NCBI GenBank assembly: GCA_000010565.1
Contig: AP009389.1
Location: forward strand, 1 to 64,000
Direction: 5' to 3'
Origin: Pelotomaculum thermopropionicum SI
GTDB taxonomy: Bacteria; Bacillota; Desulfotomaculia; Desulfotomaculales; Pelotomaculaceae
DNA length: 64,000 nucleotides
Below the pieces are notes generated by a model. It made no database searches. It saw only the letters and a list, made by a program, of their open reading frames with translations, and was not told the DNA's origin. Position numbers and translations under genes: made by a program. Below are positions 47,724 through 53,001 of the stretch, in pieces; within the stretch, counting starts at the first letter, position 1, and every line of letters starts with the position of its first letter.

Positions 47724-48968
47724 ATGAATCTCTCAAAAATCGATTACTTATTTGATGTTTCTATTAAAACGCTTTATTTTGCCGGCAAGCTTTTACAAGA
47801 GCGCGGCAATTTTGAGCGGGTTCCCGGTTGGCTTGCTGAGACTCTGGGGGTTAACGGCTCGGCTTTAGGTATTGTAGCGGCGAAGCAGTGTAAAGTCTAT
47901 TTTGCCCGGGCTGGTCAAAACGGCGAAGCCGGTTCTATGGAAGTAGCTGTGGATGTGCTGCGGTGCCTGTGTCAAAATTCTTTTGGGAACAGTAATGTCA
48001 AATGCCGTGTCTTTGACTGTCCGGTGAGACAAAAGATATTCGATAAGTGCGGCCGGTCCGGTCTGGAGGCAAGCTGTTTCCCCATGGCCGGCAGGAAAGG
48101 CTTTTTAATGGTATGCGGAGAAGCACTGCTGCTGAATTCTTCCCCCGTTACGGAAATACTTAAGGCCATAACCCATATCATCGCATGCGGTTTGGATGCT
48201 GCTGATAGAACGCGAGAAGCCGCCTCGTATTTTCTGCCTCCCGAAAATATGGCCCAAATGTGGTCAGAAATGCTGGCCGGCTTATCCCATGATTTAAGAA
48301 CGCCTCTGGCCTGTATTAAAGGATACATCACAACCTTGATGCGGGAAGACGTTACCTGGGATCCTGCTGATGAAAAAGAGTTTATGAACATTATTGTTGA
48401 GGAAACAGATCATATTGAAAGTTTAATTAATAACCTGTTGGATTCCACCACTTTTAGCTGGAAAGGTGAAATTGAACTAAGAAAAGAACTCATTTCACTG
48501 CCTCAAATAGTTAATAAAGTGCTCAGGGACCCGTCATACCGTATTAAAAATCACCAGTTTACCGTATTGTTTCCGGAAGGATTCCCGCTTGTAGAAGCGG
48601 ACCCGGTCAGGATCGAGCAGGTGCTGCGAAACCTTGTAGACAACGCGGTCAAATATTCCATGGAGGACACTCAAATTGTCATTAAAGGGGAAGCAATGGC
48701 TGGTGAAATAGTTGTTTCGATTGCCGATCAGGGCATCGGCATTGATAGCGAACACTTAAAATGGCTGTTTGAAAAATTTTTCCGGGTGGGCATAAAGGAA
48801 AATAATAAGGGAATGGGGCTGGGGTTGCCTTTAGCCCGTCAAATATTAATTAGCCACGGTGGCAGGATCTGGGCGGAAAGCAAGTTAAACCAGGGAACAA
48901 CTTTTTACTTCACGCTGCCTGTAGGCCAACAAACAGCTAAGATGAATAAACACCCGCGGGGCGACTAG
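47724..48968 (+). CDS. Sensor histidine kinase, soluble, KdpD-like C-terminus
   Basis: A 414-residue kinase without membrane segments. The N-terminal half (about 1-165) looks like a GAF-type sensor with several cysteines (CRVFDCPVRQKIFDKCGRSG), which could make it redox- or metal-sensitive. The phospho-histidine lies in GLSHDLRTPLACIKGY near 190. The ATPase domain has NLVDNAVKYS, ADQGIGID and GMGLGLPLAR. The core resembles the cytoplasmic part of KdpD, but no kdp genes are present. It is followed 9 bp later by its response regulator. Confidence 0.9.
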   Translation: MNLSKIDYLFDVSIKTLYFAGKLLQERGNFERVPGWLAETLGVNGSALGIVAAKQCKVYFARAGQNGEAGSMEVAVDVLRCLCQNSFGNSNVKCRVFDCPVRQKIFDKCGRSGLEASCFPMAGRKGFLMVCGEALLLNSSPVTEILKAITHIIACGLDAADRTREAASYFLPPENMAQMWSEMLAGLSHDLRTPLACIKGYITTLMREDVTWDPADEKEFMNIIVEETDHIESLINNLLDSTTFSWKGEIELRKELISLPQIVNKVLRDPSYRIKNHQFTVLFPEGFPLVEADPVRIEQVLRNLVDNAVKYSMEDTQIVIKGEAMAGEIVVSIADQGIGIDSEHLKWLFEKFFRVGIKENNKGMGLGLPLARQILISHGGRIWAESKLNQGTTFYFTLPVGQQTAKMNKHPRGD

Positions 48969-48977
48969 GGGGTTGAG

Positions 48978-49676
48978 ATGAAGCGCAAAACGATCCTGAT
49001 AGTGGATGACGAACCTCGCCTGGTGCGATTAGTTAAGGTTAACCTGTTGGCCAGTGGGTACGTGGTGGATACAGCCGCCGATGGAAAAACTGCAATTGAG
49101 ATGCTGGAATCTTCCGGCTATGATTTGTTAATTTTAGATATTATGCTTCCCGGCCCTCTCAATGGATTTGAGGTTTGCAAGAGAATCCGCGAATTTTCCG
49201 ATATCCCTATTATTATGCTTACGGGCCGGGCCCGCGAGCAGGACCGGATCCGGGGTTTTGACGCAGGGGCTGATGATTATGTAACCAAGCCCTTTAGCGT
49301 TGAGGAATTGCTGCTTCGTGTCAAGGCTATTCTCAGGAGAAGTCATCCATCGGAGGAATTTCCAAAAGGCCCTGTCTATAAATTTGGCGACCTGGTTATC
49401 AATTTTGCCCAAAAACGGGTCTTTGTCAGGGGCAGGGAAGTGAGGCTCACCGCTACCGAATACCAGGTCTTGTACCACCTGGGTTGTAATGCGGGAAAGG
49501 TAATTACCCATGAAGATTTGTTGACCCGGGTTTGGGGTGCTGAATACCGTAACGAGTTGCACTACCTGAGAAACTACATCAGCAGTTTACGAAAAAAAAT
49601 TGAGGATGATCCTGGCGATCCTAAATACATTCTTGGCAAACACGGTATTGGCTACTACCTGGCATTAGGTGAATAG
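48978..49676 (+). CDS. OmpR/KdpE-family response regulator
   Basis: A 232-residue regulator with a receiver domain (DDEPRLVRLV, phosphoacceptor aspartate in LLILDIMLPG, lysine in DDYVTKPFS) and a winged-helix domain ending RNELHYLRNYISSLRKKIED and HGIGYYLALGE. It is the partner of the kinase just upstream and ends at a strong terminator. Its targets are not evident; glnA is the next gene but has its own upstream region. Confidence 0.93.
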   Translation: MKRKTILIVDDEPRLVRLVKVNLLASGYVVDTAADGKTAIEMLESSGYDLLILDIMLPGPLNGFEVCKRIREFSDIPIIMLTGRAREQDRIRGFDAGADDYVTKPFSVEELLLRVKAILRRSHPSEEFPKGPVYKFGDLVINFAQKRVFVRGREVRLTATEYQVLYHLGCNAGKVITHEDLLTRVWGAEYRNELHYLRNYISSLRKKIEDDPGDPKYILGKHGIGYYLALGE

Positions 49677-49702
49677 AAAACTTTATAAAAATTCCTTGGG
49701 TG

Positions 49703-49731
49703 ACTCTGCCAAATAAAGGCAGAGTTTTTTT
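49703..49731 (+). terminator. Terminator after the second two-component system
   Basis: Eight-base stem ACTCTGCC (49703-49710) / GGCAGAGT (49718-49725) followed by seven T residues. Confidence 0.9.
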
Positions 49732-49854
49732 ATGAACTTCTTATATTCATGATTATCTCTTTTATGATTTTTTGATGAAACATCAATTAGATTAAAACTA
49801 ACCGGTGCCTTTCCCATTAAAACAAATATAATAACTATGGCTTGGAGGCTGGTA

Positions 49855-51186
49855 ATGCTTACCCGTGAAGACGTCCTGGAAAAAGCCAGGGAAGAACGAG
49901 TAAAATTCCTCCGTTTGCAGTTTACCGATATTTTCGGCGCTTTGAAAAATATCGCCGTCACGTCGGAGGATTTGGAACGGGCGTTGGCCGGCAGGGTTTC
50001 CTTCGACAGCTCTGTGGTTGACGGGGTGGTCAGCAGCCAGGAACAGGACATTACCCTCCAGCCCGACCTGTCCACCTTTTTAGTGCTTCCCTGGCGCCCC
50101 CGTGAGGAAGCGGTGGCCCGCTTCATCTGTGATGTAGCCAACCCGGACGGGACTCCCTACCCTGGATGCTCGCGCAGCGTTCTGAAACAGGTGCTGAGTG
50201 AAGCCGACCGGGCGGGGTTTAAAATACTGGTGGGTGTGGAGGTGGAATTTTATCTTTTTTATACGGACGAAAACGGCAACCCAACCACCAATACCCATGA
50301 CAGTGCAGGATATTGCGACTTGACCCCTGTTGACCTGGGTGAAAATGCCCGGCGGGACATGGTGTTGGTCCTGGAAGAAATGGGGACGGACATCGGTTTC
50401 AGTCATCATGAAAAAGGGCCGGGCCAGCACGGAATCACCCTGAAACCGGATAACGCTCTGGCCGTTGCAGACAAGCTGGTAACTTTCAAGTTTATCGTGC
50501 GTACCATTGCCCAGCGGTACGGACTGCATGCTTCCTTAATGCCTAAACCGCTTAACGGCAGGCCGGGGTCGGCATTGAACTTGTGCCTGTTTCTCCAGCG
50601 CAATGGGTACGGCTTTTTTGACGATGCACCTAAACAGCCTTCGCAGCTTGGCCAGGAGGTCGGGCACTTTATCGCCGGGATTCTGGCCCACGCCCGGGCT
50701 AACACCGCCATTACCAATCCACTGGTTAACTCTTATAAGCGGCTGTTCCCCAATGGCCTTACAATGCCTGTGCGTGTTGCCTGGTCGGAAGACAGCCGCA
50801 ATACGGTGCTTAGGGTGGTTACCCAGTGCGGGCAGGAAACGCGGGTAGAGGTGCGGAACCCGGATCCGGCATGCAACCCGTACCTTGCTCTATCCGTAAT
50901 TTTGAAAGCGGGATTGGAGGGTATTCGACAGCAGCTTCCCCAGCCGCCTCCGCTGAGCGAAAACATTTTCCTAGCAGATGACAACCAGAGCAAGGGCGCG
51001 CAGGTTGCCTGCCTGCCCCGCACCCTGGGTGAAGCCCTGCAGGAACTGGTTTCCGATCAACTGGCCAGGGCTACACTGGGCGAGTATATTTTCCGGCGGT
51101 TCGTCGAGGCAAAAGGTGAAGAGTGGGAACGTTTCCAGGCATTTGTGCATCCCTGGGAACTGCAAGAATATCTCTCCTGCTTTTAG
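49855..51186 (+). CDS. glnA: Glutamine synthetase, type I
   Basis: GlnA makes glutamine from glutamate and ammonia using ATP. From ATG 49855, with GGAGG six bases upstream, the product is 443 residues, the length of the Firmicutes GlnA. Seen: beta-grasp start FLRLQFTDIFGALKNIAVTS, the metal-binding VGVEVEFYLF near 130, GPGQHGITL near 195, KPLNGRPGSALNLCLFLQ near 230 and VRNPDPACNPYLALSVIL near 335. A possible -10 TATAAT lies at 49828-49833. No GlnR operator was recognised. gdhA follows 180 bp later. Confidence 0.95.
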   Translation: MLTREDVLEKAREERVKFLRLQFTDIFGALKNIAVTSEDLERALAGRVSFDSSVVDGVVSSQEQDITLQPDLSTFLVLPWRPREEAVARFICDVANPDGTPYPGCSRSVLKQVLSEADRAGFKILVGVEVEFYLFYTDENGNPTTNTHDSAGYCDLTPVDLGENARRDMVLVLEEMGTDIGFSHHEKGPGQHGITLKPDNALAVADKLVTFKFIVRTIAQRYGLHASLMPKPLNGRPGSALNLCLFLQRNGYGFFDDAPKQPSQLGQEVGHFIAGILAHARANTAITNPLVNSYKRLFPNGLTMPVRVAWSEDSRNTVLRVVTQCGQETRVEVRNPDPACNPYLALSVILKAGLEGIRQQLPQPPPLSENIFLADDNQSKGAQVACLPRTLGEALQELVSDQLARATLGEYIFRRFVEAKGEEWERFQAFVHPWELQEYLSCF

Positions 51187-51344
51187 CAACTGATTTTACA
51201 TAACATTGAGTGGTGGTCAGTACAAAAGGTTAGTTCTAAGAATGGCCCCGGGCCAATCCATGTTGATCTTCGCAAAGGCACGCCAGGTTATCAAGAGCCC
51301 TTGATGCAGTTTTAATGCGGGTTCTTTGGCAGCTTTCAAATTAA

Positions 51345-52712
<1,368 letters not shown>

Positions 52713-52757
52713 TTTTAGCAAGGCAAGAACTGCCGGAAAGGCAAAGGAGGTTGAACC

Positions 52758-52913
52758 ATGGATCAGTGCCCGTTAGCTTATGTTGACCCTTGTTCAAAAT
52801 GCGCTCAATTTGGGAACTGCTGTCCGAGTCAATCCCTCCAGAAACTTAACGTTCTTGAAAACGAGCTGCAAGAATTGAAAAAGATGCTGCAACAACTGGT
52901 TGATAAAAAATAA
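52758..52913 (+). CDS. Small cysteine-rich protein, unknown
   Basis: A 51-residue ORF with ATG 52758 and a very good ribosome site AAAGGAGG. The first half carries five cysteines (C4, C12, C15, C21, C22) in the pattern C-x7-C-x2-C-x5-CC. The second half is a leucine-heptad helix (LQKLNVLENELQELKKMLQQ) that should form a coiled coil. It lies 45 bp after gdhA and before a strong terminator, so it is probably the last gene of the gdhA transcript. I do not recognise the family. The layout suggests a small metal- or cluster-binding protein that oligomerises through its helix. Confidence 0.7.
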   Translation: MDQCPLAYVDPCSKCAQFGNCCPSQSLQKLNVLENELQELKKMLQQLVDKK

Positions 52914-52961: not shown

Positions 52962-53001
52962 AAATGAGACAGGGACGGCAGTTCCTCTTGTCTCATTTTT
53001 T
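52962..53001 (+). terminator. Terminator after gdhA and the cysteine-rich gene
   Basis: Perfect ten-base stem AAATGAGACA (52962-52971) / TGTCTCATTT (52989-52998) followed by T residues. Confidence 0.88.

What the first reader, a model, noticed from the sequence alone, without database searches (positions are those of the whole stretch)
52758..52913. Unrecognised 51-residue cysteine-rich coiled-coil protein following gdhA
Excellent ribosome site, five cysteines in C-x7-C-x2-C-x5-CC and a leucine-heptad helix, between gdhA and a terminator. Short genes like this are commonly missed. It may be a small metal or Fe-S sensor or chaperone tied to nitrogen metabolism.
Basis: partly seen in the sequence, partly recalled or inferred. 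Interest (0 to 1): 0.55.

Follow-up and report, generated by a model that had tools for sequence, protein, structure and literature searches.

The report
Small cysteine protein beside glutamate dehydrogenase
A real but unnamed 51-residue protein with four conserved cysteines and a coiled-coil tail is encoded at the end of glutamate dehydrogenase operons in a group of anaerobic bacteria, and probably helps tune how they take up ammonium, although its exact job is untested.

Summary
ORF 52758-52913 is a real gene: its frame is conserved in 28 of 113 genomes of the window's order under purifying selection. It starts 45 nt after the gdhA stop, has a ribosome site and precedes a terminator hairpin. 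Four of the five cysteines are conserved; C22 is not. The tail is a conserved three-heptad coiled coil.

In 18 of 28 genomes it directly follows a gdh gene, of two separate families about 35% identical (13 and 5 genomes). In 2 more it lies beside P-II/Amt, or between P-II and a regulator-glnA pair. The tie to ammonium assimilation is thus more than one inherited operon. Against a strict GDH partner: 8 genomes have it elsewhere (one at a contig end), and it is repeatedly lost below gdh.

No Pfam, NCBIfam or PDB family claims it. Metal binding and GDH binding are inferences. Best reading: a small oligomeric Cys4 accessory protein that modulates ammonium-assimilating enzymes; a new family of a known kind.

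The parts
52758..52913 (+). 51-aa Cys-rich coiled-coil small protein gene (the finding)
   Evidence: ORF; conserved in 28 of 113 order genomes; purifying selection
52744..52750 (+). Shine-Dalgarno-like AAGGAGG upstream of the ATG
   Evidence: sequence read directly; similar purine-rich sites before most of the 18 gdh-linked copies
52767..52823 (+). codons for the conserved four-cysteine motif C4-x7-C12-x2-C15-x5-C21 (C22 not conserved)
   Evidence: 28-sequence column tally: C4 27/28, C12 28/28, C15 28/28, C21 27/28, C22 5/28 (the two degenerate copies, G022 and G023, left out of the tally)
52824..52907 (+). codons for helix 23-50, a three-heptad coiled coil (hydrophobic 27, 30, 33, 37, 40, 43/44, 47)
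   Evidence: 79-100% hydrophobic at these columns in 28 sequences; AlphaFold helix 23-50, pLDDT about 95 over residues 31-50
52962..53001 (+). hairpin plus T-run, probable intrinsic terminator of the operon
   Evidence: sequence; hairpin/T-run sequences seen after most gdh-linked copies by reading
51366..52712 (+). gdhA, NADP-specific glutamate dehydrogenase (448 aa), directly upstream
   Evidence: NF006929 781 bits against cut-off 536; Pfam ELFV_dehydrog
49837..51186 (+). glnA-like glutamine synthetase, upstream in the conserved gene order
   Evidence: Pfam Gln-synt_C/N; below the TIGR00653 cut-off, so a divergent GS
48978..49676 (+). OmpR-type response regulator of the same conserved order
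   Evidence: Pfam Response_reg + Trans_reg_C; order HK-RR-GS-GDH-small in 11 of 13 gdh-type-I loci
47724..48968 (+). sensor histidine kinase of the same conserved order
   Evidence: Pfam HisKA + HATPase_c

Best explanation
The ORF encodes a genuine small accessory protein of ammonium assimilation. Shown: a conserved, selected reading frame with its own ribosome site, lying as the last gene of a glnA-gdhA (or gdh alone) gene order before a terminator, with a conserved Cys4 head and a conserved coiled-coil tail. Inferred: the tail makes it a dimer or trimer, the four cysteines hold one metal (Zn, or an Fe-S cluster in these anaerobes) or a redox-active thiol set, and the oligomer binds glutamate dehydrogenase, or a factor shared by GDH, GS and P-II, to adjust ammonium assimilation to metal or redox state. 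It is a conditional modulator rather than an essential subunit, because relatives lose or relocate it repeatedly.
For: Directly downstream of gdh in 18 of 28 genomes that carry it, gap 32-105 nt. The 18 involve two gdh families about 35% identical (13 type I, 5 type II), so the association arose more than once or was re-formed. Two further genomes have it convergent with P-II/Amt (G002, L057) or between P-II and an ANTAR-like response regulator plus GS (G051, L074). Of the 8 distinct contexts other than the window's own type, 3 are ammonium genes; at an assumed background of 1% per context P(>=3 of 8) is 5e-5 (background and grouping are my estimates). 25 of 28 carriers have some gdh, against 37 of 85 non-carriers (counted, not corrected for kinship). 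HK-RR-GS-GDH-small is found as a block in families f1, f8 and f16. The type-II-linked proteins alone carry a C-terminal RYx[RK][IV][SG] tail: 5 of 5, against 0 of 23 others. Four cysteines (27-28 of 28) and the heptad positions are the most conserved features.
Against: 8 of 28 genomes carry it with no ammonium-assimilation gene adjacent: alr (three genomes, one of them with ald), agr-like genes, a purF-like gene, others; G023, one of the 8, sits at a contig end. Three carriers (G023, G052, G069) show no gdh at E 1e-40. G053 keeps gdhA without it and has the small gene elsewhere. Nine of 22 informative loci in the window's gdh clade lack it, and the sister gdh clade (8 loci read) never has it, so GDH works without it. 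No column of GDH cleanly separates carriers from non-carriers. No direct evidence of metal or of GDH binding. Cysteines are lost in G004, G068 and G023, and the gene is nonsense-interrupted in G022.
Confidence: 0.45

Rival explanations
1. A general small metal- or thiol-buffering protein without a specific partner. Its place after gdh is inherited positional linkage and it can sit anywhere with a promoter.
For: 8 of 28 genomes have it next to other genes or at a contig end; repeated loss under gdh; a tandem pair near a biotin-dependent carboxylase in G256.
Against: Linkage to two different gdh families and twice to P-II genes is hard to get from position alone; the conserved coiled coil argues for a protein partner or a defined oligomer.
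Confidence: 0.27
2. A DNA- or RNA-binding zinc-knuckle regulator of the nitrogen genes: dimeric coiled coil plus Cys4 head, acting on transcription or mRNA rather than on the enzyme.
For: Cys4 plus dimerising helix is a layout used by small zinc-knuckle regulators (recalled); it sits in operons with two-component regulators and next to an ANTAR-like response regulator.
Against: No match to any DNA- or RNA-binding family over its cut-off; the window copy is not notably basic in its head region.
Confidence: 0.13
3. A ferredoxin-like electron carrier or donor to GDH or a neighbouring oxidoreductase.
For: Four cysteines; strict anaerobes; in G053 it lies downstream of a 4Fe-4S protein.
Against: The spacing C-x7-C-x2-C-x5-C is not the ferredoxin C-x2-C-x2-C-x3-CP (recalled motif); no Fer4 hit; GDH uses NAD(P), not ferredoxin (established knowledge).
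Confidence: 0.06
4. Not a functional protein: a chance ORF in a 3' untranslated region, or a segment conserved as RNA.
For: Short; between gdhA and a terminator; no named family.
Against: pS far above pN only in this frame; ribosome sites and starts kept at different loci; the same protein in unrelated DNA contexts.
Confidence: 0.02

Closest known systems
sP36 of Methanosarcina mazei (61 aa; abstract and outline of PMC10714827 read)
   Same: A small protein of ammonium metabolism, near the same size, acting by protein binding (AmtB1 and GlnK1)
   Different: Archaeal; no sequence comparison was made here; sP36 works on the transporter, whereas this family is linked mostly to gdh; no binding shown here
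GarA of Actinobacteria (search listing and abstract starts only)
   Different: GarA is an FHA-domain protein controlled by phosphorylation (recalled); no FHA hit here and this protein is far smaller
DUF6767 (PF20555)
   Same: A weak match over the CP-x-A-Y..C head, 8 of 15 members at E up to 1, best 0.012
   Different: Never reaches the 27-bit cut-off (0 of 60 genomes; chance stretches score alike)
Operon-encoded small enzyme subunits such as CydX (seen in search listing and abstract start only)
   Same: A short conserved ORF attached to an enzyme
   Different: CydX is a membrane subunit of an oxidase (recalled in part); here Cys-rich, no evident membrane segment, and often lost

Membership tests
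DUF6767 (PF20555) | Score over Pfam gathering cut-off (27 bits) | tested here: not met
   11.3 bits for the window protein; 0 of 60 genomes over cut-off
Ferredoxin / 4Fe-4S (Fer4) family | C-x2-C-x2-C-x3-C-P motif (recalled) and a Fer4 profile match | tested here: not met
   Spacing is C-x7-C-x2-C-x5-C; no Fer4 match
Cys4 metal-binding small protein (loose kind) | Four strictly conserved cysteines | tested here: met
   C4 27/28, C12 28/28, C15 28/28, C21 27/28; the two degenerate copies left out
Cys4 metal-binding small protein (loose kind) | Bound metal or cluster | not testable with these tools
   Needs purified protein; head modelled at low confidence, pLDDT 44-52 over residues 1-20
Coiled-coil oligomer | a/d hydrophobic repeat over about three heptads | tested here: met
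   Columns 30, 33, 37, 40, 44 hydrophobic in 100% of 28, column 47 in 79%; the best PDB profile matches are mostly coiled coils, best E 0.037
GDH accessory / modulator | Repeated operon linkage with gdh | tested here: met
   18 of 28 genomes, two gdh families
GDH accessory / modulator | Always co-occurs with the partner enzyme | tested here: not met
   Absent from 9 of 22 informative loci of the window's gdh clade; 3 of 28 carriers (G023, G052, G069) show no gdh at E 1e-40
GDH accessory / modulator | Physical binding to GDH or effect on its activity | not testable with these tools
   None obtained

The most novel reading that the evidence does not exclude
A previously undescribed family of Cys4 coiled-coil small proteins binds glutamate dehydrogenases of two distantly related subfamilies (with a tail specific to one of them) and P-II-linked partners, acting as a metal- or redox-responsive switch of ammonium assimilation in Desulfotomaculum-like anaerobes.
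Probability: 0.2. Interest if true: 0.7.

Novelty: new member of a known kind. Interest (0 to 1): 0.42.

Why it matters
Small-protein control of ammonium assimilation is known from archaea and cyanobacteria but, to my knowledge, not for glutamate dehydrogenase in anaerobic Bacillota. A family that follows two different GDH types would give a directly testable regulator or partner of an enzyme at the junction of carbon and nitrogen, in syntrophic bacteria with very tight energy budgets. It would also supply a named family for short genes that current profile libraries miss.

Tried and rejected
DUF6767: 8 of 15 members touch it at E up to 1, but whole-genome scans give equal scores to chance stretches, some with stop codons, and none over the cut-off; rejected. 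PDB profile search: mostly generic coiled coils, best E 0.037; uninformative. PHROGs: scattered weak hits, best phrog_35216 E 0.0011 for 1 of 15 members, not followed up. Phage and plasmid records and viral contigs: no relative, so no sign of a mobile-element gene. G128 in the phylum search (E 4.8e-6, two stop codons inside a 773-residue frame) and the second G071 match (E 7.7e-4 inside a 598-residue frame) were set aside as chance. GDH columns that separate carriers from non-carriers: none clean. AlphaFold from 4 sequences: helix only, head undefined; fold searches were therefore not run. Papers: DUF6767 0 hits; Desulfotomaculum + glutamate dehydrogenase + small protein 0 hits; other listings showed nothing on this family. 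PMC6046458, passages read: the gdhA gene of P. [quoted passage not shown] the small gene is not mentioned in those passages. Rows dropped: alignment A1 used 15 of the 21 loci then held; left out were L005, L008, L012 (same places as L002, L003, L004), L015 (nonsense), L016 (near copy of L014), L021 (degenerate). The 28-row tally and tree left out G022 and G023 (degenerate) and include two G256 copies. Of the 23 genomes with a gdh of the window's type but no adjacent small gene, 19 were read; G073, G074, G076 and G097 were not. Two of the 19 (G019, run of N; G111, contig end) were counted as uninformative. In one search the pairs involving L063 are out of register because of a one-codon insertion, and their high pN is an artefact.

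Full report
Observation. The reading frame at 52758-52913 is as described: 51 residues, cysteines at 4, 12, 15, 21 and 22, and a leucine-rich second half. The start codon lies 45 nt after the gdhA stop with an AAAGGAGG ribosome site. A hairpin with a T-run follows about 50 nt after the stop codon (z -3.07). Downstream lie a tRNA gene and the bacterial large SRP RNA. The window is contig 1, bases 1-64000, of a 3,025,375-base genome. From recall, this size and gene content fit Pelotomaculum thermopropionicum SI; no call names it.

Is it a gene? Yes. The genome-contig scan with the single sequence found three relatives. The profile found 28 of 113 genomes of the order (the class holds the same 113). 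In the phylum draw, 6 of 398 genomes matched: four belong to the order, one (G256, tandem pair) is credible and one (G128) is probably chance. Against nine relatives, synonymous change is 0.52-0.96 and non-synonymous 0.08-0.22 per site, while the other two frames show no such pattern. The own genome holds one copy. None was found in plasmid or phage records or viral contigs.

What is conserved. In 28 sequences (two degenerate copies left out, two G256 copies included) C4, C12, C15 and C21 are present in 27, 28, 28 and 27, and C22 in 5. P5, A7, Y/F8, G19, P23, L33 and E34 are also nearly fixed. Columns 27, 30, 33, 37, 40 and 44 are hydrophobic in all 28, and column 47 in 79%. AlphaFold on four sequences gives a confident helix 23-50 (pLDDT about 95 over residues 31-50) and an undefined head (pLDDT 44-52 over residues 1-20). 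This fits a Cys4 head on a coiled-coil stalk; metal is inferred, not shown.

Where it sits. In 18 of 28 genomes the gene is directly downstream of gdh on the same strand, with a 32-105 nt gap. Thirteen follow the window's gdh type (NADP-specific, NF006929 over cut-off), 11 of them in the order histidine kinase, response regulator, glutamine synthetase, gdh, small gene; of the other two, one contig begins inside gdh and one locus lacks the block. Five follow a second gdh family, 34-38% identical to the first. Of the other ten genomes, G002 has it convergent with P-II and Amt, and G051 has it between P-II and an ANTAR-like response regulator followed by glutamine synthetase. G069 has it after ald-alr, G081 and G107 beside alr; G107, G045 and G101 have it divergent from agr-like genes; G053 beside Fe-S proteins and a purF-like gene; and G052 by a UPF0047 gene. 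G023 carries a degenerate copy at a contig end, next to a transporter that lies beside gdh in its close relatives. G256, outside the order, has a tandem pair near a carboxylase.

How strong is the link? Counting contexts instead of genomes, three of eight contexts other than the window's own type are ammonium genes (second gdh family, P-II/Amt, P-II/glnA; the other five are alr, agr, G053, G052 and G256). With an assumed 1% background per context this has probability 5e-5; the background and the grouping are mine. Of 28 carriers, 25 have some gdh at E 1e-40, against 37 of 85 non-carriers (counted; kinship not corrected, and adjacency makes the count partly circular). The type-II-linked proteins share a C-terminal RYx[RK][IV][SG] ending (5 of 5) that the other 23 lack. 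One of the five (G068) is in the same genus as two genomes that carry the type-I form without the tail, so the tail follows the gdh type and not the genus; the protein tree groups it the same way, with modest support.

Against a strict partnership. Of 36 order genomes with a gdh of the window's type (at least about 70% identical), 13 have the small gene behind it. Nineteen of the other 23 were read and none has it there, two of them being uninformative. On the gdh tree all 13 carriers fall in one clade (13 of 22 informative members), with losses scattered through it, and the eight-member sister clade never has it. G053 keeps gdh and carries the small gene elsewhere. G022 has an in-frame stop, and G004, G023 and G068 have lost cysteines. 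The protein is thus accessory and dispensable.

Mechanism, with steps marked. Shown: a selected small protein, usually at the end of a gdh transcription unit by gene order (transcripts not seen), with Cys4 and coiled-coil conservation. Inferred: oligomer; metal or redox site; protein binding that adjusts ammonium assimilation through GDH or a factor shared with GS and P-II. I give the whole chain 0.45, a partner-less metal or thiol protein 0.27, a nucleic-acid-binding regulator 0.13, an electron carrier 0.06 and an artefact 0.02.

Comparison with the known. No Pfam, NCBIfam or PDB sequence family fits; DUF6767 was tested and not met. It may work like sP36 of Methanosarcina mazei (abstract and outline read) or, functionally, like GarA (listing only), but it is not shown to belong to either. 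Searches of the held papers for DUF6767 and for Desulfotomaculum with glutamate dehydrogenase and small protein returned nothing. The transcriptome paper on the presumed host, of which passages were read, mentions gdhA but not this gene in those passages.

Verdict. A true, overlooked small gene, tied to ammonium assimilation in a patchy but repeated way; biochemical role open. Interest 0.42, new member of a known kind.

Noticed in passing
L060, L062, L063, L064, L065 (small genes): Small proteins behind the second gdh family end in RYx[RK][IV][SG] (5 of 5); none of the 23 others does.
   Followed up: partly
L055 (6095-6244) and L056 (7178-7324): In one genus (g8) the small gene is decaying: one copy lost most cysteines, one has an in-frame stop after the Cys motif, and other members lack it.
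   Followed up: partly
L070 8857-9800, L071 7161-8104, L072 7125-8149: In three genomes the small gene is divergent from a two-gene unit with an AgrB-like protein and an unnamed 157-158 aa protein, next to a 551-572 aa protein, possibly a sensor kinase.
   Followed up: no
L084-L087, 3' of gdh: In genus g34 the gdh gene is followed by a similar leader-like stretch (GGATACAA..TGTCC..GGCAA.GATTGCCC) before an ANTAR-like regulator and glnA; possibly an RNA target of that regulator.
   Followed up: no
window 47724-52913 and L069: The HK-RR-GS-GDH-small block of another family (f8, G031) has a GDH 87% identical to the window's, closer than any same-family genome searched, suggesting transfer of the block as a unit.
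   Followed up: partly
L075 7839-8552: Outside the order, G256 holds a tandem pair of the small gene upstream of a PYC_OADA/biotin carboxylase subunit.
   Followed up: no
window 49837-51186: The glnA in this operon scores below the GlnA equivalog cut-off (389.5 against 429 bits), so it looks like a divergent glutamine synthetase paralogue.
   Followed up: no
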